From Mycobacterium sp. HUMS_12744610 (GTDB lineage: Bacteria > Actinomycetota > Actinomycetes > Mycobacteriales > Mycobacteriaceae), in the NCBI RefSeq assembly GCF_041206865.1, contig NZ_JBGEDP010000003.1, positions 1-64,000 of the forward strand: DNA of 64,000 nt. Reading direction: 5' to 3'. The position numbers and the translations under genes are program-made. Shown here one piece after another: positions 42,625-58,256 of this stretch. The notes under the pieces were generated by a model. The model was not told where the DNA came from. It saw nothing but the letters and a program-made list of their open reading frames with translations, and did not search any database. Numbering within the stretch: position 1 is the stretch's first letter; each line of letters opens with the position of its first letter.

Positions 42625-44112
42625 GGTCGCGTCCTGAAACCGGTGTAAATGGGGCCGGGCGTAGGTTCTGCTTCGAGACCTACCAAGTCATCGAAGAAAG
42701 GACCTACGCCCGTGCCTGCACGAGTATTGCCGACCGACCGTGTTCGCGCCAAGATCGACGAGTTGTTCGCCTCCGATCGTGAGCTGCCCGAGATCCTGGA
42801 GGAGGTGGCCCGCCTCGGTGCGCAACTGTTGATGCAGGCCGCGCTGGAAGCCGAGGTGACCGAATTCCTGGGCCGGGAGCGCTACCAACGCACCGCAGCG
42901 ACACCGGATGCCCAGCCGGGGTCACGCAACGGCTATCAGCCGGTGACGGTCAAGACCACCGCTGGCCCGGTCACCTTGGAGCGGCCCAAGCTGCGCGGCA
43001 CGACCGCCGCGTTCGCCTCACGGCTGTTCGGCAAGCACGTCACCAAGACCAACGCGCTGGAATCGCTGGTGATCGCCTCATTCGTGCGTGGATTGTCGGT
43101 GCGCGATGTCGAGGCCACCCTTGCCGATGCGCTCGGTGATCAGGCCGCGATCTCGAAATCAACGGTGTCGCAGGTATGCCAAGCCATCAAGGCCGAGTAC
43201 GACTCCTGGGCGGTCCGCCGCCTCGACGAGGTGGTGCTGGACTACCTGTTCCTGGATGCCTCGTTTTTCCGGATGCATCCCGGCTCGCCGGCCGAGCCGG
43301 TCCTGGCTGTCTGGGGCATCACCACCGACGGCAAGCCCGTCTTCGTGGGCCTGGCCCCCGGCACCGGGGAGTCGACGGATGCCTGGGCCGACTTTTTGAC
43401 CGACCTACGCGACCGTGGGCTGGGGTGCCCGCTGCTGGTGGTCTCCGACGGGGCCCGCGGATTGATCGCGGCTATCGAACAAATCTACCCAAAAGCGTTG
43501 CGCCAGAGATGTCTTATTCACCGGCTGCGCAATATTCTGGCGAAGATCCCGGCGGGGATGCAGGCCGAGATCCGCGACGGCTACTGGGCCTGCTTCGACA
43601 CCGACGGCCTCAACATCGAACCCGGCCCACGCCTGGTCGAGCTCATCGACGCCCGGCTGACCGCGTTCGCCGACCGCTACGCGCCCACCTACCCGGCGGC
43701 GATGAAGATCTTGCTGACCGACCGGGAGGGTCTGACCGCTTATCTGCGGTTCCCGACCGAGCATCATCACCGCATCCGGCACTCGAACTTCATCGAGCGC
43801 ACCTTCGGTGAAACACGCCGTCGCGCAAAGGTTATCGGCCGCTTCCCGGGCGAGACCAGCTGCATCAGCATCGTCTGGGCCGTCCTTGACCGCGCATCGC
43901 GCGGCTGGCGCGGACTGACCATGACCCCCGCCGGGTTACGCCAGCTCCAAGACCTACGCCGTGCCCTGCTGCAACCACCACGGCAACTACGACCCCAGCA
44001 CACCCCGGACTCCGCCACCAACAACCCCGAGCCTGTCAGCGCCACCGCGTAACATCACCCACCGAAGCCAGAACCTGCGCCCGACGATTTACACCAAAAT
44101 CTGGACGCCACC
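42625..44112 (+). mobile_element. IS256-family element B, copy 1
   Basis: 1488 bp, ends GGTCGCGTCC (42625) and GGACGCCACC (44112), imperfect inverted repeats that both continue to GGTGTAAAT. It is bounded by the 9-bp direct repeat GCCCTCCGA (42616-42624 and 44113-44121). An identical copy in opposite orientation lies at 45104-46591. Confidence 0.88.
42712..44052 (+). CDS. IS256-family transposase B1
   Basis: A 446-residue protein from GTG 42712. Catalytic D in FLDASFFRM, D in VVSDGARGLIAAI, E in NFIERTFGETRRR; CLIHRLRNILAK is the conserved C-x2-H block. GSRNGYQPVTVKTTAGPVTLERPKLR is the N-terminal signature. Reading frame intact and identical to the copy at 45164-46504, so either could supply transposase for both. 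Confidence 0.9.
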   Translation: MPARVLPTDRVRAKIDELFASDRELPEILEEVARLGAQLLMQAALEAEVTEFLGRERYQRTAATPDAQPGSRNGYQPVTVKTTAGPVTLERPKLRGTTAAFASRLFGKHVTKTNALESLVIASFVRGLSVRDVEATLADALGDQAAISKSTVSQVCQAIKAEYDSWAVRRLDEVVLDYLFLDASFFRMHPGSPAEPVLAVWGITTDGKPVFVGLAPGTGESTDAWADFLTDLRDRGLGCPLLVVSDGARGLIAAIEQIYPKALRQRCLIHRLRNILAKIPAGMQAEIRDGYWACFDTDGLNIEPGPRLVELIDARLTAFADRYAPTYPAAMKILLTDREGLTAYLRFPTEHHHRIRHSNFIERTFGETRRRAKVIGRFPGETSCISIVWAVLDRASRGWRGLTMTPAGLRQLQDLRRALLQPPRQLRPQHTPDSATNNPEPVSATA

Positions 44113-45033: not shown

Positions 45034-45103
45034 GACGTGACTTTTCCGGGACCCTGGATCCGCACCGCGGCACCTGCGGAAGCCTACGACTTGGGGGTTT
45101 CCG

Positions 45104-46591
45104 GGTGGCGTCCAGATTTTGGTGTAAATCGTCGGGCGCAGGTTCTGGCTTCGGTGGGTGATGTTACGCGGTGGCGCTGACAGGCTCGGGGTTGTTGGTG
45201 GCGGAGTCCGGGGTGTGCTGGGGTCGTAGTTGCCGTGGTGGTTGCAGCAGGGCACGGCGTAGGTCTTGGAGCTGGCGTAACCCGGCGGGGGTCATGGTCA
45301 GTCCGCGCCAGCCGCGCGATGCGCGGTCAAGGACGGCCCAGACGATGCTGATGCAGCTGGTCTCGCCCGGGAAGCGGCCGATAACCTTTGCGCGACGGCG
45401 TGTTTCACCGAAGGTGCGCTCGATGAAGTTCGAGTGCCGGATGCGGTGATGATGCTCGGTCGGGAACCGCAGATAAGCGGTCAGACCCTCCCGGTCGGTC
45501 AGCAAGATCTTCATCGCCGCCGGGTAGGTGGGCGCGTAGCGGTCGGCGAACGCGGTCAGCCGGGCGTCGATGAGCTCGACCAGGCGTGGGCCGGGTTCGA
45601 TGTTGAGGCCGTCGGTGTCGAAGCAGGCCCAGTAGCCGTCGCGGATCTCGGCCTGCATCCCCGCCGGGATCTTCGCCAGAATATTGCGCAGCCGGTGAAT
45701 AAGACATCTCTGGCGCAACGCTTTTGGGTAGATTTGTTCGATAGCCGCGATCAATCCGCGGGCCCCGTCGGAGACCACCAGCAGCGGGCACCCCAGCCCA
45801 CGGTCGCGTAGGTCGGTCAAAAAGTCGGCCCAGGCATCCGTCGACTCCCCGGTGCCGGGGGCCAGGCCCACGAAGACGGGCTTGCCGTCGGTGGTGATGC
45901 CCCAGACAGCCAGGACCGGCTCGGCCGGCGAGCCGGGATGCATCCGGAAAAACGAGGCATCCAGGAACAGGTAGTCCAGCACCACCTCGTCGAGGCGGCG
46001 GACCGCCCAGGAGTCGTACTCGGCCTTGATGGCTTGGCATACCTGCGACACCGTTGATTTCGAGATCGCGGCCTGATCACCGAGCGCATCGGCAAGGGTG
46101 GCCTCGACATCGCGCACCGACAATCCACGCACGAATGAGGCGATCACCAGCGATTCCAGCGCGTTGGTCTTGGTGACGTGCTTGCCGAACAGCCGTGAGG
46201 CGAACGCGGCGGTCGTGCCGCGCAGCTTGGGCCGCTCCAAGGTGACCGGGCCAGCGGTGGTCTTGACCGTCACCGGCTGATAGCCGTTGCGTGACCCCGG
46301 CTGGGCATCCGGTGTCGCTGCGGTGCGTTGGTAGCGCTCCCGGCCCAGGAATTCGGTCACCTCGGCTTCCAGCGCGGCCTGCATCAACAGTTGCGCACCG
46401 AGGCGGGCCACCTCCTCCAGGATCTCGGGCAGCTCACGATCGGAGGCGAACAACTCGTCGATCTTGGCGCGAACACGGTCGGTCGGCAATACTCGTGCAG
46501 GCACGGGCGTAGGTCCTTTCTTCGATGACTTGGTAGGTCTCGAAGCAGAACCTACGCCCGGCCCCATTTACACCGGTTTCAGGACGCGACC
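45104..46591 (-). mobile_element. IS256-family element B, copy 2 (inverted)
   Basis: Same 1488-bp element as 42625-44112 in reverse orientation, to my reading identical. The flanking direct repeat is GGTTTCCG (45096-45103 and 46592-46599). It landed in the last codons of the TerD/FHA membrane-protein gene. The two copies enclose ~1 kb and could form a composite element or invert the DNA between them. Confidence 0.88.
45164..46504 (-). CDS. IS256-family transposase B2
   Basis: 446 residues, same protein as the copy at 42712-44052 with all catalytic residues (FLDAS, VVSDG, FIERTF). Start GTG at 46504. Intact. Confidence 0.9.
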   Translation of the reverse strand: MPARVLPTDRVRAKIDELFASDRELPEILEEVARLGAQLLMQAALEAEVTEFLGRERYQRTAATPDAQPGSRNGYQPVTVKTTAGPVTLERPKLRGTTAAFASRLFGKHVTKTNALESLVIASFVRGLSVRDVEATLADALGDQAAISKSTVSQVCQAIKAEYDSWAVRRLDEVVLDYLFLDASFFRMHPGSPAEPVLAVWGITTDGKPVFVGLAPGTGESTDAWADFLTDLRDRGLGCPLLVVSDGARGLIAAIEQIYPKALRQRCLIHRLRNILAKIPAGMQAEIRDGYWACFDTDGLNIEPGPRLVELIDARLTAFADRYAPTYPAAMKILLTDREGLTAYLRFPTEHHHRIRHSNFIERTFGETRRRAKVIGRFPGETSCISIVWAVLDRASRGWRGLTMTPAGLRQLQDLRRALLQPPRQLRPQHTPDSATNNPEPVSATA

Positions 46592-48118
46592 GGTTTCCGG
46601 CCCGACTTTCCACGGTGGTCCCAGCATCTCTACAGCCTCTTGAGGCGTGACGGCAGCGTTGATGTTGGTGATCGTGGGTTTGCCGCCCTCGAATGAAATC
46701 TTCGCGATCATGATCGTGTTTGTCGGTTTCGTCGCCGTCAACGGGACGACGATCGTGTCACCATTATTGGTCTGCACGGTCACTTTTCCGTCGTAGTCGC
46801 TGAACGAACTCGAAGCCGTGTGATGATAGATTCTCGCCACAATAAAAATTTCCTTGAAGCCATCGAGAGATGACATCTTGATGTTTTCCTGATTGTCTCC
46901 GCCGACTTTACCCACACCGGAATCCTTGTTCAGGAACATCCCCGGTCCAGTTTTTTGTTCCCAGCTAACTTTGCCTACTTTGTTCTCGTCGGAGGACAAG
47001 CGGTAGTCCGCCTCGATATCGAGGTCCACGGGAGCCTGCCACGTCAATCGAACGTTGACTTCGGTGATCGGTTTTGATGTGTCCAGGGTTGCTGACTCGC
47101 CCGCGCTGCCCAACGTCGTGATGCGGCTAGCTCCCGCACTTGCTTGGGTATCGGCTGCGGGTCTGGGTCCGAAGAGGGTAAGCGCGATAGCGGCTATGAC
47201 AACCGTGGCGACTACCGAAATCACGACAGGTAGATTCTGCTTCTTCTGCGCAGCGCCGTTGGTCGTGGGCGCATGGACGACCAACGTCAGTCCGCCGATG
47301 CGCAGGCGGCTACCGTCCTGCAGGGGCGTTCGTTTCCCCGAGGCCGTTTCAACATGCTCGACCTGACCGTCTTTGAATACGAGGCTGGAAACTTGGGGAG
47401 GCAGCCCCTTCTTGAATATGTGTTCCTCGCCTCCACCGCCTACGAATACGGGCTGGGAACCGAGACCAACGTACGACGTTTCATAGGGTGCCCATTCCAC
47501 CTCGACGCTGGCTTCGCGAGCCATGTTCTGGACGAAGTACATCGCCAAGCCGAGCGCCAGTCCTAGCAGCGCTATCCCCACGACCCTTCCCGCGAAGCCT
47601 GGCAGGAACATCGACGCCAAGAGGAAGCCCATGCAGCCGATGGCTCCGCCAATCGCTCCGGCACCGAGACCACGGGCCATGCTGAGGTTGGGGACGGCTC
47701 TCGATAGCAGGGCACCCAGAAGTGCTCCCATCAATGACCACGCCACGATGCGCAGGGCGTAGTACTTCAGTTCGAAGGAGCCGATATCCATGCTGAAGAG
47801 GTACTGGGCGGCGGCACCTGCGACGAAGCCCGCGAGAGCACTCCCGGCGAGGACTTGTGCTGCGCGACTTGGATTCAAATCATGCCGCTGATACCACTCA
47901 CCGGCGATGTACAGTAGAAATCCCAGGATGCTTGCGAACGCGGCTGACCACAGGGCGGTCTCCAGAACCAAACGTAGCTGGCGGGCAGTGCTATCGGCGT
48001 CCAATTGGCTACCGACGACGAGTTCGGCGAACACAGCGCCGAGCGCGCCACCTGAAAAACCCGCAATGGCGTACAGCAGTTGCTGGTTCGACCTCAGCGC
48101 GTTCAGACCACTAGCCAC
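46568..48118 (-). CDS. Membrane protein with FHA-like and TerD-like domains
   Basis: A 516-residue protein. Six or so hydrophobic segments in residues 1-200 (LLYAIAGFSGGALGAVFAELV ... VVGIALLGLALGLAMYFV). Then comes a small beta domain with FHA-like pattern (PVFVGGGGEEHIFKKGLPPQVSSLVFKDGQVEHVETASGKRTPLQDGSRLRIGGLTL). Another membrane segment follows (LPVVISVVATVVIAAIALTLFG), and then a TerD-like C-terminus (VRLTWQAPVDLDIEADYRLSS ... GPGMFLNKDSGVGKVGGDNQENIKMSSLDGFKEIFIVARIYHH). The last residues (GRVLKPV) come from the IS; without it the protein ends VGPETPKS with a stop at 45084-45086. Last gene of the TerY/PP2C/kinase operon. Confidence 0.7.
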   Translation of the reverse strand: MASGLNALRSNQQLLYAIAGFSGGALGAVFAELVVGSQLDADSTARQLRLVLETALWSAAFASILGFLLYIAGEWYQRHDLNPSRAAQVLAGSALAGFVAGAAAQYLFSMDIGSFELKYYALRIVAWSLMGALLGALLSRAVPNLSMARGLGAGAIGGAIGCMGFLLASMFLPGFAGRVVGIALLGLALGLAMYFVQNMAREASVEVEWAPYETSYVGLGSQPVFVGGGGEEHIFKKGLPPQVSSLVFKDGQVEHVETASGKRTPLQDGSRLRIGGLTLVVHAPTTNGAAQKKQNLPVVISVVATVVIAAIALTLFGPRPAADTQASAGASRITTLGSAGESATLDTSKPITEVNVRLTWQAPVDLDIEADYRLSSDENKVGKVSWEQKTGPGMFLNKDSGVGKVGGDNQENIKMSSLDGFKEIFIVARIYHHTASSSFSDYDGKVTVQTNNGDTIVVPLTATKPTNTIMIAKISFEGGKPTITNINAAVTPQEAVEMLGPPWKVGPETGRVLKPV

Positions 48119-48147
48119 GACAACCCCACCTTTTCATCATGATGACT

Positions 48148-49047
48148 TCAGCACTGCACACCGGGGAACGAACCTAGGCGGTCTACAACCCATTTGGATA
48201 GGGCGTCGAGTTGCGCGGTCCCTGTTTGAAAGCCGCCATCGGATGGGAGCGCCGCAATGGCTATCCCCACGGCGCCCGAATCTGTTTTCACCAGCGCGAT
48301 TTGGCGCACCAGGTAGCTGCCTTCCGGCGAAGGACCCCAGCCTCCCTTGACGGCGGCATTCGCGCTGCCCGCCAGTCCCCACTGCTGGTTGCCGCCAATG
48401 CTGCGCATGTCGTTGACTACCGCGTCGCTTTGGTTCAGACACGGCAATTTTGACATGAACTTCGCTTGATTCGCCAGCGACCAGTTCGTTTGCCCGAACG
48501 CCGTGAACTCGCTTCGAGTCTTTTCGGACTGTACGACAGTCGCGGTGTCACCTGCTTCTGCAAGAACAGCACCCACGGACTGTGCCGCTTGTGACGGTTG
48601 ACCTAGCTGACCCCAAAGCGCCTCCGCCGCTGCGTTATCGGAGTCCCTGATGGCGGGCACGACAAGGGGAGCAGCGGCTTTATTCGAGTGGCGAAGCGCG
48701 GCAATAGCCAGAGGCACCTTGATGGTTGACCATGCAGGACCGGTTGTCCATGAGCCAAAACTCCGAACTCCGTTGCCGCTCGCGATAGCTACCCCGACTT
48801 CGCCAGCAATAGCGGTACTCACGGCTTCGAAACTCTGTTGAAGCCCGTCTGCCGTCACCGCATCCGTTGGCGCCGGAGCTGTAGCTGTCGGTGCAGCCGA
48901 TGCTGGTGCGGTCGTTTCCGAAACGCTAGGTGCTTGATCATCGGGTGAATCACCAGTAGCAAGATTCCCACCGGCGCCACACGAAACGGTTCCCACTACG
49001 CACACCAAAGAAAGCGCTAGCGAAAGAGTTCTGCGCCGAGAGCACAC
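48148..49047 (-). CDS. Lipoprotein with beta-lactamase-like serine hydrolase fold
   Basis: A 299-residue protein from GTG 49047, eight bases after the kinase stop. Signal peptide with lipobox (SLALSLVCVVGTVSC), a Thr/Ala/Pro-rich linker, then a class A beta-lactamase/PBP-like domain: SxxK as WSTIKVPLAIAAL, S-D-N as IRDSDNAAAEALW, and KGG as AAVKGGWGP. The Glu166 region is not obvious, so lactamase activity is doubtful; a peptidoglycan-binding or sensing role is more likely. Membrane-anchored outside the cell. Confidence 0.75.
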   Translation of the reverse strand: MCSRRRTLSLALSLVCVVGTVSCGAGGNLATGDSPDDQAPSVSETTAPASAAPTATAPAPTDAVTADGLQQSFEAVSTAIAGEVGVAIASGNGVRSFGSWTTGPAWSTIKVPLAIAALRHSNKAAAPLVVPAIRDSDNAAAEALWGQLGQPSQAAQSVGAVLAEAGDTATVVQSEKTRSEFTAFGQTNWSLANQAKFMSKLPCLNQSDAVVNDMRSIGGNQQWGLAGSANAAVKGGWGPSPEGSYLVRQIALVKTDSGAVGIAIAALPSDGGFQTGTAQLDALSKWVVDRLGSFPGVQC

Positions 49048-49054
49048 AGAATGA

Positions 49055-50722
49055 TTAATAGAGGTACACCTCCGCCCCAACGCCACCTTCACAGGTGATC
49101 CAATCTTCACCAGCATCAGCCTGGCAGGTCACCTCGTACAATCGACCGCCCGGCGCACAGGATGCCCCGGCAACACTGTCGCAGCGGACCGAACCAGCTA
49201 CTTCCATGTCGCGGCGTTCTCTGGACGGTTCACCGAAAGTGTTCCAGTACGCGATGAGGACGCTCTCGGTGAACTTGCACGAAGTTCGTGCGGTTCCCCG
49301 TATGGCCTTCGTTGCCCACCCCGACCGATCCGTCAGGCTATAGCCGCCGCTACATGATTCCCCGGTCGGGTCTGGCCCCGAAGCCCCCGGAGGCGGGATC
49401 ACGTTAACAGGAGTAGGCGATGTGGTGGTCGTGCGTGGCGGAACCGTGGAGGTGGAAGTCCACGTTGGCGCGGTGGTTCTCGTCGTCGTACTCGCAGTGG
49501 TGCGTTTATCAGCGGCTTGCGCGCTATCCGAAAACCACGCGGGATCAAATTTCGCAGCCAGAACCAGCGCTCCGAATACAACGGGGACCAGCAGCCAAGC
49601 AAGCTTCCCTGAAGACTTGGAGTACTGCGGGGACGGTGTCGGTGGCTGCGGATAGTACTGCGGGGACGGTGTCGGTGGCTGCGGATAGTACTGCGGCGTG
49701 GGCATACCTGGTGGATTGCGTGGCTGCACAACAGGAATCGGTGCAGGCGGCGGCATGCCGTGCATGGGTATCGCCGATGGCGGAGATGGTGGTGGAATCA
49801 CCTGCACAGGTATCACCCGCGGAGTCGGGGGTGGCGGAGGAGGCGGCGGAGCATTCACTGGAGCCGCCTGCCATGCCTGTTCTAGTGCTGAATCCCAGGT
49901 AGAGAGGTTCGGTCGATTCGCTGCGGGCTGGGTGAGCGTATTCGTGATGACCTGACGCAAGACAGGGTGAACCGAAGCAGGCAATCGAGCAGGGTCCTTT
50001 GCGTCTTGGCTGCCGACGATCAAGCGTAGTGCGAGAAGCCCGAGTTTGTAACGGTCTGAGAAGGTTGTCGCTTTCTCCTCCCCGGTGGGAACCTCCCATC
50101 CGGGGGTCTCCAACTGCGTGGTCAACGACACGCCGTTGACACGCATCGCATCGCAGTCAATGAAGTACGTTTCAGGGTTGTTGCCTGATAGCGAAAACAG
50201 AAGATTCTTCGGCGAGAGGTCACCAACACAGATGCCGTGTCCGTGGAGAAACGTCAAAGCGGAGACCAAGCTGCGTAGCAGCCCGTACCGCTGACGGTCC
50301 GATATCATCTGCCCGCCGAAACTTCTTGCCAGCACGTGCGGCTCGTTCAGAAGATGCTGGAACTCTGCGGCGATCTTCGACGGACCCTTGACCGTCCAGA
50401 AGTCGGTAAAGAACTCATCGGGAATGGTTGGCATCACGAAGCCTGTAGCTCTGCCGTTGTCCTCCACAACGCGGCAAGGCCACGCCGCAATGCTGATGAG
50501 CCGCGCCCCTTCGCCATAGGGAAGCGACTCGAGACACGCAGGCATCGCCTTGAGTGCATTCACATCCAGCGCAGCCAACGCCGCCTGCTTGTACTCCTTA
50601 TAAACCATGGACTTTGCGAAAGGAATACTTATTTGGGGTGCTTTGTAGACGACCCCTTGACCGCCTTGGCTTATCTTCACCAAGGTTGCCGAAATACGGG
50701 AGAGTTCGATGGACTTAGTCAC
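49055..50722 (-). CDS. Divergent membrane protein kinase of the TerY-P type
   Basis: A 555-residue protein. The N-terminal ~270 residues are a protein-kinase fold with altered motifs: GGQGVVYKA (glycine loop), YKEY (Lys), HGHGICVGDLSPKNLLF (HRD region with D and N kept) and YFIDCDAMRV (DFG to DCD), typical of kinases in TerY-phosphorylation triads. A Pro-rich linker has an 11-residue tandem repeat (QYYPQPPTPSP twice). One transmembrane segment (LAWLLVPVVFGALVLAAKF), a Thr-rich stalk, and a Cys-containing extracellular domain (ESCSGGYSL ... SCKFTESV ... RCDSVAGASCAPGG) follow. Confidence 0.78.
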   Translation of the reverse strand: MTKSIELSRISATLVKISQGGQGVVYKAPQISIPFAKSMVYKEYKQAALAALDVNALKAMPACLESLPYGEGARLISIAAWPCRVVEDNGRATGFVMPTIPDEFFTDFWTVKGPSKIAAEFQHLLNEPHVLARSFGGQMISDRQRYGLLRSLVSALTFLHGHGICVGDLSPKNLLFSLSGNNPETYFIDCDAMRVNGVSLTTQLETPGWEVPTGEEKATTFSDRYKLGLLALRLIVGSQDAKDPARLPASVHPVLRQVITNTLTQPAANRPNLSTWDSALEQAWQAAPVNAPPPPPPPPTPRVIPVQVIPPPSPPSAIPMHGMPPPAPIPVVQPRNPPGMPTPQYYPQPPTPSPQYYPQPPTPSPQYSKSSGKLAWLLVPVVFGALVLAAKFDPAWFSDSAQAADKRTTASTTTRTTAPTWTSTSTVPPRTTTTSPTPVNVIPPPGASGPDPTGESCSGGYSLTDRSGWATKAIRGTARTSCKFTESVLIAYWNTFGEPSRERRDMEVAGSVRCDSVAGASCAPGGRLYEVTCQADAGEDWITCEGGVGAEVYLY

Positions 50723-50786
50723 TGATCTAAGCCCCTGCGTTCACGAGCACTACCGTCATCTCCCCGCTGCACCACAACATCGGAAC

Positions 50787-52013
50787 TCACTCGGATGGAC
50801 GGAAACGCGGACTGATAGCAACCAGCGTGCGGTCGTCATCGAATGTCTCACGACTGAAATCCACCGCATGCGCGAACTCGATGAGCGACGGTGGGGTTGA
50901 TCCACCAAGCAGCTCCCTGAAGAGATTTCCCACGCCGCCCTGTCCTTCGCCCAGTGGATCACCGATCCCATCGGTACCGAGCAACAACACGTCCCCATGC
51001 CCGAACTCCACCACCGAGGGCTCCACCTGGGCAGGAACGCGCGGCAAACCTGAGACCGCCGATGAGGAAATACCCCCTTCGCCAACCGTTTTACCGTCGA
51101 GCACAGCGTGAAACTGACCGTCGTGCAGAAGCCACGCGCCGGAGTCCCCCACACCAATGACGAAAGCTCGATACGCGTCCGGAGCTACTGCCTCCACCAC
51201 CGCGCAAGTCAGCGTGGTGGCTAGCTCTTTCTCAGCCAAACCTGGATCAGGATCAGGTGTCTTGAAGAGAACCTGCGCGCGCTCCGTCAACGCCCAGGCC
51301 GTGCTTTTCACGAGGGCTTCCCAGTCTGTCTCTTCAGAGTCGCTGGGAGCTTGGGACAGCAGCCACTGCGCGGCGTAGTTGACCACGGCGCTTGATCCGA
51401 GGTGCGATTGGGTAGCAGCAGATACCCCATCGGCAACAACCGCAATGATGCGACCGTCCGGCATTAGATGAATCGCGAAGTCGTCCTGCCGAGGAGCGCC
51501 GTTATACCTGTGGAAGTGCCCCCGCAGGGATGCCCCCAGCACCGTCATCGCATCGCTCGACCACCCATCAATAACGGTGTCAGGGCGAAACGGTACCGAC
51601 CGAAATGCATCGCCTATCGGGCCGGGCTCGACATCAGGTGAGGCAGTACCGATCACCAACTGCGGCACCCCGATAGGTCCAGAAATCTCCGCTACCGCAC
51701 CCTGGGGGGAATCTGCGGGCTTAGTCTCCAACGCGACCGTATCGCTAACCGGCGGTCCTTCATCGTTGAATACCGCATCAGTACCATCACCAGCCCCGAC
51801 AATCACACTCGGAGGACGATGCTCACTCTTCGGAGGGCGCGGCGCCTTGTCGGTCCCACCCGTGCTCTCCGAGGCGTCAGGGTCCGTCGCTATCTCGACA
51901 GCGAAATCCCCAGACCGTTTGAACGCGGCGGGAGATCCAGCCTCAGCGTCAGTATCCGTCCCGTCCTGCGACTTCGACCGCTTTCCCCAACGACGTTTCG
52001 GCGTGTCAGCCAT
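50787..52013 (-). CDS. PP2C-type protein phosphatase
   Basis: A 408-residue protein. The first ~140 residues are a low-complexity acidic and Pro-rich tail. The PP2C core then shows NGAPRQDDFAIHLMPDGRIIAVVADGVSAATQSHLGSSAVV (metal-binding Asp in QDDF and ADG), FVIGVGDSGAWLL, LLLGTDGIGD and DDRTLVAIS. It would remove phosphates placed by the kinase next door. 14 bases separate it from the vWA gene upstream. Confidence 0.88.
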   Translation of the reverse strand: MADTPKRRWGKRSKSQDGTDTDAEAGSPAAFKRSGDFAVEIATDPDASESTGGTDKAPRPPKSEHRPPSVIVGAGDGTDAVFNDEGPPVSDTVALETKPADSPQGAVAEISGPIGVPQLVIGTASPDVEPGPIGDAFRSVPFRPDTVIDGWSSDAMTVLGASLRGHFHRYNGAPRQDDFAIHLMPDGRIIAVVADGVSAATQSHLGSSAVVNYAAQWLLSQAPSDSEETDWEALVKSTAWALTERAQVLFKTPDPDPGLAEKELATTLTCAVVEAVAPDAYRAFVIGVGDSGAWLLHDGQFHAVLDGKTVGEGGISSSAVSGLPRVPAQVEPSVVEFGHGDVLLLGTDGIGDPLGEGQGGVGNLFRELLGGSTPPSLIEFAHAVDFSRETFDDDRTLVAISPRFRPSE

Positions 52014-52026
52014 ATCCGTTTAGCCG

Positions 52027-52707
52027 CTACAGAATATCGACGGCCAACGAGAAACCTTCGGGCTTCTCCATCTGCAGCTCCGCAGAACCCGATGCCAACG
52101 CCTGACCTGAGCTAATCACCGACTGCGTCAACGAGGTAATGAACTCACTGATCGCCGCCCCGGTATCAACACCTTTGGCAGCGATAAACGCATACTCCGG
52201 TTTGGTGGCAATCTCTTTCACCGTGGCGGCATCCGCCTCACCGATTCCGAAAGCGAGGATGTTCGGGCGACCATGCTGCGCGAGCAGATTCGAGCGGGCA
52301 GCCTGCCAGTCATCTCCCACATTTGGCTGACCATCGGTCAGAAAGAACACGGCAGGTCGGTTCACCGCGAACCCCTGAGACTTCAGATTGGGAACGTCCT
52401 GATTGACACGCGTAATGAGCTCGTTAAACGCCGCAGCGTAGGAAGTCATACCCCGCGCTTGCAGGTTCGGCATTGCTGGCAATTCACGCAGATCGCTCGG
52501 CTCAAGATAAGTGTGGGCAGTGTCGGAGAACCCGACGACCGCAAAACGCACCTTGGCAGCAGCAAAAGATTCCTTCTGCAACGAGTCCTGGAGTGTCACC
52601 AGCCCCTCATTGAGTTCCGCGATGTTGGGTGTCATCGACCCCGACTCATCTGCGACGAAATACACCGGAAGTACCGTGCCCTGTGGTTCCACCCTCAGCC
52701 CCTTCAC
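52027..52707 (-). CDS. terY-like: TerY-like von Willebrand A domain protein
   Basis: A 226-residue protein, nearly all one vWA domain. The MIDAS metal site is complete: D-x-S-x-S as VADESGSM (residues 20-24), T in ARGMTSYAAAF, and D in FFLTDGQPNVGDDW. Closest in layout to TerY of tellurite-resistance-type loci, which bind a Ca2+/Mg2+-dependent partner. First gene of the five-gene operon; the ~50 bases upstream give way to IS remnants, so its promoter may have been altered. Confidence 0.82.
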   Translation of the reverse strand: MKGLRVEPQGTVLPVYFVADESGSMTPNIAELNEGLVTLQDSLQKESFAAAKVRFAVVGFSDTAHTYLEPSDLRELPAMPNLQARGMTSYAAAFNELITRVNQDVPNLKSQGFAVNRPAVFFLTDGQPNVGDDWQAARSNLLAQHGRPNILAFGIGEADAATVKEIATKPEYAFIAAKGVDTGAAISEFITSLTQSVISSGQALASGSAELQMEKPEGFSLAVDIL

Positions 52708-53733: not shown

Positions 53734-54846
53734 TCATTGGGTTGTTCCGAGAGCGTTTTGGATGTCGGTGAGAAGGTCGTCAATGTCCTCGATGCCTAGT
53801 GCGATGCGTGCGAATCCGTCGGCAACGGGGTCGCCCCAGCGGGCCCGGCGATCCACCGAGGTGTGGATGCCACCGAAGCTGGTGGACGCGATTAGCAGCT
53901 CGCTGTGCTGCACCAGTGCGTGGACCGCGGCGGCGTCGGCCAACTCAACCGACACCAGGGCACCGAATCGGCGCATCTGTGCCACGGCCACTGGATGCGC
54001 GGGATCCTGCGGCAACCCCGGGTAGCGCACCTTCCGTACCGCCGGATGGCTAGCCAGCATCGTGGCTAAAGCTTGCGCGTTGAGGCATTGCCGTTCGAAC
54101 CGTAATCCAGCGCTGCCCAGGCTGCGCAGCAGCAACCACGCCTCGAATCCACCTAGGATCGCCCCGGTGAGCAGCCGTTGGCGTTCCACGGCGGCGACCA
54201 ACTCGGGCTGGCTGGTGGCTACGTATCCCGCGACCAGGTCACTGTGACCCGACAGGGCCTTGGTGGCGCTGGCCACCACCACATCAGCACCCAACGACAA
54301 CGGTTGCTGGCTCAGCGGCGTGGCGGTCGTGTTGTCCACGATCAGGCGTGCGCGGCGACCATGGCAGACGGTGGCCAGCCGGCGGAGATCCACCGCATCC
54401 AGTCCCGGATTGGTGGGAGTCTCGGCCAGTACAACGTCGGCACTCGCGGCGGCGTCACAGATTTGCGAACTGGCCGCCTCAATGACCGTCACCCCTACGG
54501 GCACAAGATATTCCGTGGCATAGCGGCGCACCTGGTAGTAGCCGTCGGCCGGCACCACCAACACCGACCCGGGCGTGGCCAGTACGCGCAGTGCAGCGCT
54601 GATGGCCGCCATACCGGAGCCGAACACCAGCGCGCTGGTCGCGCCCTCCAGGTCGGCCAGCGCCGATTCCAGGTGCCGCCAGGTCGGATTGGAGCTGCGG
54701 CCGTAGGTGTCCAGGTCGGGCGTTTCGTCGGTCGACAAGTGGTAGGTGGACGCCAGCACGGCCGACGGCGCCACCGGTTGGCCCGGGATGGCCGCAGAAC
54801 GCACGGCTTTGAGGCTACGAGTGGAATCGCCGTACCGACTGCTCAT
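53734..54846 (-). CDS. Cystathionine gamma-synthase/lyase-like PLP enzyme (cargo)
   Basis: A 370-residue protein of the Cys/Met-metabolism PLP family. TYGRSSNPTWRHLESALADLEGATSALVFGSGMAAISAALR is the N-terminal active-site region (Y, R, and SGMAA phosphate loop). LAETPTNPGL and LIVDNTTATPL (PLP-ring Asp) follow, then the Schiff-base Lys in VVASATKALSGHSDLVAGYV. Substrate preference between synthase and lyase is undecided. Its ATG overlaps the TnpB tail stop (ATGA), so it is expressed with the transposition genes. Confidence 0.85.
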   Translation of the reverse strand: MSSRYGDSTRSLKAVRSAAIPGQPVAPSAVLASTYHLSTDETPDLDTYGRSSNPTWRHLESALADLEGATSALVFGSGMAAISAALRVLATPGSVLVVPADGYYQVRRYATEYLVPVGVTVIEAASSQICDAAASADVVLAETPTNPGLDAVDLRRLATVCHGRRARLIVDNTTATPLSQQPLSLGADVVVASATKALSGHSDLVAGYVATSQPELVAAVERQRLLTGAILGGFEAWLLLRSLGSAGLRFERQCLNAQALATMLASHPAVRKVRYPGLPQDPAHPVAVAQMRRFGALVSVELADAAAVHALVQHSELLIASTSFGGIHTSVDRRARWGDPVADGFARIALGIEDIDDLLTDIQNALGTTQ

Positions 54847-57117
54847 GCGTGTTCACTCCAGCTGGGTGCGGAACCGCGCGTCGCTGCCTGCGTTTCGCTG
54901 CACTCTGCTGTGCACTGGCAGTCGGACCGATCAGCCTCAAGGGTGGTGATGATGGTGAGCAGGTTGGCCTCAACGGTGCGGTTCATCTCGGCCATGCGGG
55001 TGTGACCGTCAGCCTTGGCGCGGGCGATCAATGCGCGGGTGTCGTCGAGCTGCTTGTGGTGTTGGGGTAGGAATTCGGCGGTCGTGATGAACAGCGGGCA
55101 GGTCAGGCACGCGTTGGAGTGCGGGCACGATTTTTGCAGCGGGAGCCCGCAATAGCCGTTGGGCAGTGCCATTTTCGCTCGGGCAAGGTTTTGCTTCATC
55201 CATTCGGCATCGGCGAGCGGTCCGTCGATCGTTGTCTCGACGGGCTCACCACGGATGTTGATCTTTTGAGCGCGTTCCCACTGCTCGCGGATGGTGCTGT
55301 CGGCCAGCCGCTCTGGCATACACGGCGGTCATGGTGTGGCTGGTGTGGTCTAGCAGCCGTCGGACCACTTCCTGCGGCACGTCATGGTTGATCCACCGAG
55401 TGGCGGCTGTGTGCCGGAATTGGTGAGCGGTGACATGCACTGGCTGACCGAGTTCATCTGTGAAACCGCATGTTTCGAGCCACTGCCCGAGCTGGAGGTG
55501 GAACGTCGCGGTGGGAATGGCCAGCCGCCCGTCGGGGTTGGCGCTGCTCCGCGGCAACAGCACTGCGGTAGTTGGGAACCGTTGCCGAGTGCGTGCCTGC
55601 TGCGCCTGGATCATGGTGGCCAGTTCGTCGTCGATGGGCACCATCGCGTCGCGGCGCATCTTGTGGTTGCGGTAGCGCAAATAGACCGCGCCCTGCGGGT
55701 CGCGGATCAGACAGTCCATCTGAAGCCGGGTGGCGTCGCCGATGCGCAGGCCGGTGCGGATAAGGACCTCGACTAGCAGCCGGATCCGTGGGTCGCTGAT
55801 GCGGTCGAGGTTGGCTGAGCTTTCCAGCTGGGCCATGACGAACTCGGGAATCGCCCGCGGTGCCGGTGTCTCGTCGCGGCGGGGTTGGTCGCTGGGATAC
55901 AGTTGCGCCTCGGCCGGCAGCGATGCCCACCGGTGCTGGCGCACCGCGTGGAGAAACCCGGTCACGCAGCCGATGTCGGTGCTGCGGGTCTTCGGGTGCG
56001 GGATTTCGACCGCGAGTTGGGCCAGATAGGCCTCCAGGGCAGCGCGGTCGAGTGCGTTCAGGCCGGGCGAGCTCGCCAATCTCGGTGTCAGCTGCGACAG
56101 CCGCACCAGCGCAATGCGGTCCCGACGTAGCTGCCCCAGCCCGACTCCGCACGACATTCGCCAGCGGCACCACCGTTTGGCCAGCTCTCGCAGCCACAGT
56201 GGTTGCACCGCGGTGAAATCCAGGCGGGCTCCGTCATGGCCGGAAACACCGAGCCGGCGTAGCCGCCACACGTCACGCTGGTATTCGCTGTCCCAGCCGG
56301 TCCCGTCGCGCAGGTCGAGCAGGCACTCGATCGCGTAACCGAGGAACGCGCGCGGTGTGTGCAGCGCGGCCGCTGCCGGCAGTCCGGCCAGCCAGTCATC
56401 GAGTGGATACTCCAGCAGCGATTCGGCCCCGGTCGCCGCCAAGTGGTCCAGCAGTGGCTTGATCGACCGCGGTGTGGTGCGGGTTCGGTTCGCATCGACC
56501 CGGCATTGCAGCGCGTACTGGATCTCAAGCCGCAACTGCGGCGCCAGCAGCCGCAAGTCGAAGCGGTCCTCACCGTAGCTAGCGCAGTAGGCGATGAACT
56601 CCGCCGCCGGCGGGCGACCACGCAGCCGCCACCGCCTGTGGTGGGAATGACACCAGCCCGCGTCCAGTTCGGCCCACAACGCGCACCCCGGGATGGCGCA
56701 CACCGCTGCAGGCGTGCCAGCCACTTGCGGGGTCCACTGATCCACCGCGGGGCGTCCGGCCTTGTCCCAGGCACGAGAATGCATGTAGCACAACCGGTAC
56801 CGATGTTGTCCGAAACCACAATCAGGCACCAGGCACGACTGCAGCGGCCGGTACCCCATCACCTCTGGATCGGCGGTCGCCGCCCACGCTTGCCGGTCCG
56901 GACGACCAGTCTTTCTCCACCGGCCCAGATGGGCCGGGCAGAGTCCGCCGTAGCGACTCGAACGCACACATCCGGGCACCGCGCACGCGGGCGACCCGAG
57001 AATCGGATCGTCCACTGCGGGCACCAGCACCTCGCCCCGAAACTCCGGTCGCACCGCTGCACCCAAATGCGCAACCCAGCCAGACTCGATCGGGGCCGCC
57101 AGCGTCTCGATGCTCAC
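54843..57117 (-). pseudogene. TnpB-type tyrosine recombinase with a frameshift
   Basis: Two frames that belong together. The first (57117-55246, start GTG in GTGA overlap with TnpA) has the catalytic domain: IRTGLRIGDATRLQ (R), ahead of HQFRHTAATRWI (H-x-x-R), LLDHTSHTMTAVYAR (H, Tyr). After VYAR the family continues LADSTIREQWERAQKINIRGEPVE..., which is found in the second frame (55319-54843) together with the zinc tail CPHSNACLTCPLF. The switch is near 55311-55314, where four bases (ctct on plus) look inserted. The catalytic Tyr is kept; the tail is lost unless ribosomes shift. Confidence 0.75.
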
Positions 57118-58256
57118 AGCGGCCCGTCCCGCTCGGCCAGCCACCCTGCAGCCACTAGCGCGCGACGCGTGTCTTCGACCTTCAGATGCGCATACGTGTC
57201 ACTGGTCGTGGCAATCGACGCGTGACCCAGCAGGTGCTGCACTACCTCGACTGACACCTTGCGGCGCAACAACTCTGTCGCATACGAGTGGCGAAAAGTA
57301 TGCGGCCCGAACATAATTCCGGTTCGCTCCCGCAATCGGCAGACCAGATCGTAGACGCTGGCATACGTCAACGGACACCCGGTAGGACCTGACCACAAGT
57401 TCACGAACACGTAGTCGCTGTCCAGCTCGCCGTACTCGCCGTGCAGGTAATCGGCATACAGCCGGATCACCTCGCCCGGCACCGGCACCTGCCGACCTCC
57501 GCCCTTGGCTCGGGCCCGATTCGCATTGACCCGCGGCACCACCGATACCAGCCGCGCCGCGGCGTCAATGTCGCTGTGCCGCAACCCCAACGCCTCACCA
57601 ACCCGCAGCCCCGAAGAAGCGAGCAGAGAAAACAGCAGCCTATCCCGCAGCCGATCACACGCCGCCACGATCGCCGCGGTCTGCTCGCCGTCCAGCGTTT
57701 CCGGGATGCGCCGCTCAGCCCGTAACCGGATCCGCCTGCTGCGTTCCGGTCGAGATCCCAGGTGCGCCAGCAACGGTCGCCACGACCCACCATGCGCCGT
57801 GCGCCGCTGCCAGGTCGTCAGAAGGTCCCCCAGATCCACGCCGTGGCGCTGATGGAACTCATAGAACGCCGAGATCGCCGACAGCTTCCGGTTCACCGTC
57901 GCCTCCGAGCACACGCTCTCCGCGGTCGGCAATACCGCAACGTTGCCTACCCGCGCCGATGCCGGCAACCGCAGCCATGCCACGAACCGGCCCACGTCTT
58001 CCAGCTGCACCCGCGACCACACCACATCGCGCTGATCAAGGAATTCGAACCAATCCCGCAGATCATGGGCGTAGGCCTTCACCGTGTTCGGGGAGCGCTC
58101 GACCGCGTGCAGATGTGCTAAGAACCCCTCGACCGGCTCCACCACCGCCGAATCCTGATCAACCAGGGTCCACGACTGCCGATCACCGAACGGCATCACC
58201 ACCGGCTGCACCCTCAGACCAGGACACGTCATAGATACCGAAGATAACTGGTCCAC
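57114..58256 (-). CDS. TnpA-type tyrosine recombinase
   Basis: A 380-residue protein (GTG 58256; ATG 58232 possible). N-terminal SAM-like core-binding domain (VEGFLAHLHAVERSPNTVKAYAHDLRDWFEFL), catalytic R in SSGLRVGEALGL, H-x-x-R in GPHTFRHSYATEL, H in LGHASIATT, and nucleophile Tyr in SDTYAHLK. All active-site residues are present. Belongs to the TnpA/XerC-like lineage of Tn554 transposons; overlaps TnpB by four bases (GTGA). Confidence 0.87.
   Translation of the reverse strand: MDQLSSVSMTCPGLRVQPVVMPFGDRQSWTLVDQDSAVVEPVEGFLAHLHAVERSPNTVKAYAHDLRDWFEFLDQRDVVWSRVQLEDVGRFVAWLRLPASARVGNVAVLPTAESVCSEATVNRKLSAISAFYEFHQRHGVDLGDLLTTWQRRTAHGGSWRPLLAHLGSRPERSRRIRLRAERRIPETLDGEQTAAIVAACDRLRDRLLFSLLASSGLRVGEALGLRHSDIDAAARLVSVVPRVNANRARAKGGGRQVPVPGEVIRLYADYLHGEYGELDSDYVFVNLWSGPTGCPLTYASVYDLVCRLRERTGIMFGPHTFRHSYATELLRRKVSVEVVQHLLGHASIATTSDTYAHLKVEDTRRALVAAGWLAERDGPL

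What the first reader, a model, noticed from the sequence alone, without database searches (positions are those of the whole stretch)
45084..52707. Membrane-spanning TerY-phosphorylation system
vWA (TerY-like), PP2C and a VGDLSPKN/DCD-type kinase form the core triad known from comparative studies of ter-type stress systems. Here the kinase is a receptor with a Cys-containing outer domain, and the operon adds a beta-lactamase-fold lipoprotein and a membrane protein with FHA-like and TerD-like domains. A signal from the cell wall or antibiotics could be passed inward through phosphorylation to TerD/TerY. The operon is also visibly more A/T-rich than its surroundings. I know of no described system with this set.
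Basis: partly seen in the sequence, partly recalled or inferred. Interest (0 to 1): 0.88.

Follow-up and report, generated by a model that had tools for sequence, protein, structure and literature searches.

The report
Cell-wall-sensing variant of TerY-P triad
A mycobacterial plasmid-like contig carries a five-gene signalling operon that joins a known kinase/phosphatase/vWA module to an outer sensing domain and a cell-wall-enzyme-like lipoprotein, and some related bacteria have other cell-wall enzymes at the same place, which suggests a plug-in system for watching the cell wall.

Summary

New here: the kinase's Cys-rich outer domain is shared with ordinary mycobacterial receptor kinases and lies within 5 kb of a homologue of this lipoprotein at 32 of 52 places (148 genomes), against 0 of 20 control places. 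In YegI-type kinases the directly following gene, where it is a cell-wall hydrolase (14 of 47), goes with the outer-domain type: SxxK hydrolase or amidase, GH3 glycosidase, or PF00144 serine hydrolase. Best reading: a cell-wall surveillance version of the triad. The complete five-gene order was seen only in the window and M. senegalense, whose gene 5 lacks the TerD part. Function is inferred. Counter-evidence: 33 of 47 kinases have no such neighbour directly downstream, and outer domain B elsewhere has no GH3 nearby.

The parts
52027..52707 (-). Gene 1: TerY/YegL-type vWA protein, 226 aa, MIDAS motif DxSxS...T...D present
   Evidence: Pfam VWA 7.7e-11; 31% to E. coli YegL, E 4e-17 in a 3-protein comparison; motif by eye
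50787..52013 (-). Gene 2: PP2C-family phosphatase, 408 aa, metal-site motifs present, ~160-aa N-terminal extension
   Evidence: Pfam PP2C_2 2.2e-21 at 164-357; motif positions
49055..50722 (-). Gene 3: YegI-type receptor kinase, 555 aa: kinase 1-300, low-confidence Pro/Ser-rich stretch with one TM near residues 373-392, outer domain about 443-555
49058..49444 (-). Cys-rich outer domain (type A) of gene 3; no Pfam family and no PDB sequence relative
   Evidence: Pfam none; PDB profile none at E 10; C20, C45, C77, C96, C107 invariant in 13 aligned copies, C85 in 90% or more
48148..49116 (-). Gene 4: exported SxxK serine-hydrolase-like lipoprotein, 322 aa; motifs STIK (130), SDN (159), KGG (257)
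   Evidence: Beta-lactamase2 1.7e-6; SxxK/SDN/KGG kept in 43-44 of 44 homologues; overlaps gene 3 by 62 bp
46592..48118 (-). Gene 5, native part: six N-terminal helices, FHA-fold domain 201-285, TM7 295-316, TerD-fold domain 332-500
   Evidence: model mean pLDDT 74.3; FHA and TerD matches; topology by hydropathy and charge; hhalign to TerA type
46568..46591 (-). Read-through of gene 5 into the IS end: last few residues of the window ORF are IS-encoded
45104..46591 (-). IS256-type element (transposase 45164-46567; family name recalled), inserted at the 3' end of gene 5; not part of the system
   Evidence: inverted identical copy at 42625-44112; 8-9 bp target duplication at 45096-45103 and 46592-46599

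Best explanation
It is an envelope-sensing variant of the TerY-P (YegL-PphC-YegI) phosphorylation triad. Outside the membrane, the SxxK lipoprotein binds or trims peptidoglycan stem peptides (or is acylated by a beta-lactam), and its product, or the lipoprotein itself, is read by the Cys-rich outer domain of the kinase (inferred). This changes the activity of the cytoplasmic YegI-type kinase, which phosphorylates the operon's own proteins, probably the vWA protein, with the PP2C as the off-switch (inferred from the family). The FHA domain of gene 5 docks the phosphorylated partner at the membrane, in the way the FHA protein ArnA binds the phosphosite-bearing end of the vWA protein ArnB in Sulfolobus, and carries an outer TerD-fold domain of unknown ligand (inferred). 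Shown: gene content, order, domain folds by prediction, hydropathy topology, conserved catalytic motifs, and the genomic linkage of outer domain A and of part of the YegI-type kinases to cell-wall enzymes. Not shown: any activity, ligand, phosphosite or phenotype.
For: Outer domain A and the lipoprotein family are neighbours: 32 of 52 outer-domain places in 148 genomes lie within 5 kb of a lipoprotein homologue, against 0 of 20 control places with another outer domain (type B) and 6-kb flanks (Fisher p 5e-7, ignoring relatedness). Same-strand and convergent layouts both occur, so it is not one inherited block. In 5 of 5 upstream-layout loci read, an Amidase_3 gene joins the pair (background 2 of 20). 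Of 15 lipoprotein-less outer-domain loci looked at, 4 have an LpqI-like GH3 gene and 1 an Amidase_2 gene next door; GH3 background 0 of 20. The outer domain sits on both YegI-type and canonical HRD/DFG kinases (4 and 20 of 33 proteins read, 9 unassigned). Of 47 YegI-type kinases with an outer part of 60 aa or more, 14 are directly followed by a cell-wall hydrolase gene, and its family follows the outer-domain cluster: A (11) 5 lipoprotein and 1 amidase, B (4) 3 GH3, C (5, Nocardia) 5 PF00144 (Pfam). Catalytic motifs kept in 43-44 of 44 lipoproteins. FHA fold. ArnA-ArnB abstract (PMC6509490).
Against: 33 of those 47 kinases have none of the probed hydrolases directly downstream, among them the seven named Micromonosporaceae and Streptomyces loci in the set (L017-L020, L022-L024). 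Outer domain B on other proteins has no GH3 within about 1.5 kb at 28 of 28 loci (19 with a canonical kinase, 9 unassigned) nor within 5 kb at 20 of 20, so pairing is not strict. Of 81 lipoprotein rows 49 have no outer domain A within 5 kb, so that family also works without it. Of 15 lipoprotein-less outer-domain loci looked at, 10 show no probed hydrolase; 5 more were not looked at. Nocardia copies are related, and at least L012/L027 and L005/L140 are near duplicates. A shared neighbourhood shows a link, not its direction: the kinase might control the enzymes rather than sense their products. Gene 5 is rare: own and one other of 394 genomes of the order.
Confidence: 0.5

Rival explanations
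1. Anti-phage (biological conflict) system: the triad senses infection and gene 5 or another target acts as effector; the outer parts only anchor or tune it.
For: TerY-P is reported as a stand-alone anti-phage system and as part of CoCoNuT operons (passages of PMC7699616, and PMC11090510). Low G+C, plasmid-size contig and IS copies beside it. In a Streptomyces triad locus a Pycsar effector-type gene is near (PycTM 1.9e-17, L022).
Against: PADLOC matches only the kinase, at best MkoA 1.1e-7, STK_OB 0.018; vWA, PP2C, genes 4 and 5 have none. The form reported to defend has an OB fold, and the CoCoNuT one a zinc ribbon, where this kinase has a membrane helix and outer domain. Neighbours of the outer domain include many cell-wall enzymes; nucleases were not searched for.
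Confidence: 0.2
2. Beta-lactam sensor-responder of the BlaR/MecR kind built on a kinase: the lipoprotein is the drug-binding part and the output raises tolerance.
For: Penicillin-recognising SxxK/SDN/KGG motifs nearly invariant; Nocardia triads carry a different PF00144 serine hydrolase in the same place.
Against: GH3 glycosidases and an Amidase_3 gene, not expected to bind beta-lactams, occupy the same place elsewhere. The stretch after SDN shows no conserved class A general-base Glu by eye.
Confidence: 0.12
3. Ter-type tellurite, metal or oxidant resistance system.
For: TerD fold of gene 5, TerY-like vWA.
Against: No PF02342 match in the genome; the TerD-fold domain is absent from gene 5 homologues P0025 and P0026 and predicted outside.
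Confidence: 0.06
4. Decaying passenger of a mobile element without current function.
For: IS insertion in gene 5 and a second IS copy nearby; IS-like reading frames on both sides (by eye).
Against: All five reading frames are open, catalytic motifs are present, and the insertion touches only the last residues of gene 5.
Confidence: 0.06

Closest known systems
TerY-P triad (Anantharaman 2012 and Gao 2020, seen only as cited in PMC11090510 and PMC7699616)
   Same: TerY-type vWA, PP2C and Ser/Thr kinase encoded together
   Different: Kinase C-terminus is a membrane helix and outer domain instead of zinc ribbon or OB fold; two added genes with envelope-facing parts
E. coli YegL-PphC-YegI
   Same: Gene order vWA, PP2C, kinase (with yegJ between on the other strand); kinase and vWA homologous; membrane kinase
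   Different: YegI has a Cys pair, hydrophobic stretches and a helix-hairpin-helix-like end (by eye); no cell-wall enzyme among the neighbours in the 20 kb shown; PphC did not align well with gene 2 by BLASTP
Mycobacterial canonical receptor kinases with outer domain A
   Same: Same Cys-rich outer domain, often the same neighbouring SxxK lipoprotein
   Different: Canonical HRD/DFG kinase; no vWA or PP2C match beside them in 7 of 8 such loci read; the eighth, L144, has a divergent vWA/PP2C/kinase set about 5 kb away
ArnA-ArnB (FHA/vWA) of Sulfolobus
   Same: FHA protein and vWA protein as partners under phosphorylation control (abstract, PMC6509490)
   Different: Archaeal, regulates the archaellum; only an analogy

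Membership tests
TerY-P triad | TerY-like vWA with MIDAS motif | tested here: met
   Pfam VWA 7.7e-11; YegL 31%; motif
TerY-P triad | PP2C phosphatase adjacent | tested here: met
   PP2C_2 2.2e-21, 13 bp from vWA
TerY-P triad | Ser/Thr kinase adjacent | tested here: met
   kinase fold, YegI homology
TerY-P triad | Kinase fused at its C-terminus to a zinc ribbon (CoCoNuT form) or OB fold (anti-phage form) | tested here: not met
   sequence and model show a low-confidence linker, TM and a Cys-rich outer domain; definition from passages of PMC11090510
TerY-P triad (defence form) | Protects against phage | not testable with these tools
   needs an experiment
YegL-PphC-YegI type triad | Homologous kinase without canonical HRD/DFG motifs, with a hydrophobic stretch, plus vWA and PP2C genes | tested here: met
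   PP2C by family, not by match to PphC; the family name Yegi1 is from a table in PMC12599244
Canonical ter gene cluster | TerD-family genes present | tested here: not met
   0 PF02342 matches in the whole genome; TerC not searched
TerD fold family (gene 5 C-terminus) | TerD fold | tested here: met
FHA domain (gene 5) | FHA beta-sandwich | tested here: met
FHA domain (gene 5) | phosphothreonine-binding residues | tested here: inconclusive
   canonical motif (recalled) not obvious by eye
Class A beta-lactamase (gene 4) | SxxK, SDN, K-x-G motifs | tested here: met
   43-44 of 44 homologues
Class A beta-lactamase (gene 4) | scores above NCBI class A cut-off | tested here: not met
   21.7 bits against 200

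The most novel reading that the evidence does not exclude
Mycobacteria, Nocardia and their kin have a modular cell-wall surveillance class: a fixed cytoplasmic triad (vWA, PP2C, YegI-type kinase) whose outer domain and adjacent secreted peptidoglycan enzyme change together, with outer domains exchanged with ordinary receptor kinases; in the window's branch an FHA membrane protein displays a TerD-fold domain on the outside of the cell, the first TerD-type domain placed there as far as I recall.
Probability: 0.35. Interest if true: 0.78.

Novelty: new variant of a known kind. Interest (0 to 1): 0.6.

Why it matters
What turns on bacterial receptor kinases and what TerY-P/YegI triads sense are, as far as I recall, open questions. 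The linkage found here names a testable candidate: the outer domain reads the product, or the state, of the cell-wall enzyme encoded beside it. It would place a module known from stress and phage defence into envelope monitoring, and would give a setting in which a TerD fold works outside the membrane. The outer-domain family, with no Pfam match and no solved relative by sequence, is present in 46 of 148 genomes of the genus sampled.

Tried and rejected
Canonical ter cluster: rejected, no TerD in the genome. Known defence family by PADLOC: only weak kinase matches. Strict one-to-one pairing of outer domain and enzyme: rejected for outer domain B. Relation of the outer domain to solved structures: no sequence match; the fold comparison of the kinase model was filled by kinase domains, so the outer domain was in effect not compared. 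The Foldseek 'pdb' search never got a place in the queue. Plasmid collection: no DNA match, kinase in 2 of 72,556 records, Streptomyces and Embleya, gene 5 in none. Papers: listings showed no title or abstract start on this gene set or linkage (14, 69, 108 gave no papers); subscription papers are mostly not held, and the YegI paper was not held. A hand-picked 29 of 64 kinase rows was clustered first; all 47 rows with an outer part of 60 aa or more were then done and are what the counts use. Rows left out: lipoprotein matches weaker than about E 1e-39 were not used (81 rows used).
Full report
WHAT IS THERE. The window is the first 64,000 bases of a 145,953-base contig in a 6.4-Mb, three-contig genome, plasmid-like by size; no replication gene was looked for. 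Relatives place it among the mycobacteria. The five-gene order was found again only in Mycolicibacterium senegalense (L001) among the 27 loci and the genome loci held; there gene 5 is 317 aa and lacks the TerD part. On the minus strand the genes follow closely: vWA, 13 bp, PP2C, 64 bp, kinase, 62-bp overlap, lipoprotein, 29 bp, membrane protein. Pfam names the vWA, PP2C and beta-lactamase-type domains; the kinase scores below Pfam's cut-off and the membrane protein has no family. The operon has 59.4% G+C against 63.5% for the rest. The reported span also takes in an IS256-type element at 45104-46591, identical to an inverted copy at 42625-44112. It entered the last codons of gene 5 and made an 8-9 bp target duplication; P0001 agrees with gene 5 up to that point and ends differently.

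THE OUTER DOMAIN AND CELL-WALL ENZYMES. The outer domain (type A) occurs in 46 of 148 genomes, at 52 places. Of 33 distinct proteins read, 20 have a canonical HRD/DFG kinase, 4 a YegI-type kinase and 9 could not be assigned or were cut; two of the nine, scanned with Pfam, are partial kinase matches. 32 of the 52 places lie within 5 kb of a homologue of gene 4 (81 lipoprotein rows used); seen from the other side, 32 of 81 lipoprotein rows have the outer domain nearby and 49 do not. The layouts are same-strand downstream, convergent, and same-strand upstream. Five upstream-layout loci were read and all five have Amidase_3, lipoprotein and the outer-domain gene side by side (Pfam for L200 only); L152 is alike, and L139 and L142 have the amidase between kinase and lipoprotein. 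Of 20 places without the lipoprotein, 15 were looked at: 4 have an LpqI-like GH3 gene next door (Pfam run on one, L210), 1 an Amidase_2 gene, 10 none of the probes. Control: 20 places of another outer domain (type B) with about 6 kb on each side show the lipoprotein 0 of 20, GH3 0 of 20 and Amidase_3 2 of 20 within 5 kb (one stretch is cut by its contig end). 32 of 52 against 0 of 20 gives p 5e-7, without correction for relatedness.

THE SAME TREND IN YEGI-TYPE KINASES. Of 64 YegI-type kinase rows in the loci held, 47 have an outer part of at least 60 residues. 14 of 47 are directly followed by a probed cell-wall enzyme. Cluster A (11): 5 lipoprotein, 1 amidase, 5 neither directly downstream, though a lipoprotein homologue is within 4 kb in all 11. 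Cluster B (4): 3 GH3 (Pfam E 1e-83 or better); the fourth is cut by the locus end. Cluster C (5, Nocardia): 5 PF00144. The other 27 have none directly downstream; in one, a Micromonospora, the next gene is a CRP-like regulator (L017). At least two pairs in clusters A and C are near duplicates (L005/L140, L012/L027), so the independent cases are fewer. Outer domain B away from YegI-type kinases has no GH3 beside it (0 of 28 with short flanks; 0 of 20 with long flanks), so this trend is not a strict rule.

GENE 4. Its SxxK, SDN and KGG motifs are kept in 43-44 of 44 homologues, so it is probably an active acyl-enzyme, but it is far below the class A beta-lactamase cut-off and its only PDB match is weak (LRA-5, E 0.29). 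The family is common: 90 of 148 genomes.

READING. A fixed inner triad with a changeable outer domain and neighbouring peptidoglycan enzyme is most simply a cell-wall surveillance device. The FHA domain of gene 5 offers a docking site for a phosphorylated partner, by analogy with ArnA-ArnB (abstract). The direction of control (sensing the enzyme's product, or regulating the enzyme) is not decided by these data. Phage defence remains a serious rival because related triads are reported to defend against phages. No listing showed a description of this arrangement, in a library that lacks most subscription papers.

Noticed in passing
L139:7045-9693, L003:6978-9533: Single proteins that fuse a canonical HRD/DFG kinase to a YegI-type kinase (882 aa in L139; L003 inferred from length and match position).
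   Followed up: partly
L207, L210, L211, L215: Outer domain A beside an LpqI-like GH3 gene and a large gene that resembles aftD (names LpqI and aftD recalled); in L210 and L215 the outer-domain protein is only a partial kinase match.
   Followed up: partly
L022:10317-10826, L017:8547-9239: A Streptomyces triad lies near a PycTM (Pycsar effector-type) gene and a Micromonospora triad is followed by a CRP-like regulator.
   Followed up: no
L002, L138, L139, L141 and P0060: Proteins with a DUF2510-like GWYDDP start recur near these triads (by eye); one gene 5 homologue (P0060) carries PF10708.
   Followed up: no
L014:6199-6875: Two small secreted proteins that resemble the outer domain by eye lie just after the lipoprotein gene.
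   Followed up: no
window 53734-58256: Cystathionine-lyase-like gene followed by what looks like a Tn554-type recombinase set; IS-like frames on both sides of the operon (names recalled, by eye, not tested).
   Followed up: no
L154, L155: Mycobacterial ter genes (TerD 6.5e-85 in L155) with a TerA-type protein, in other species of the genus.
   Followed up: partly
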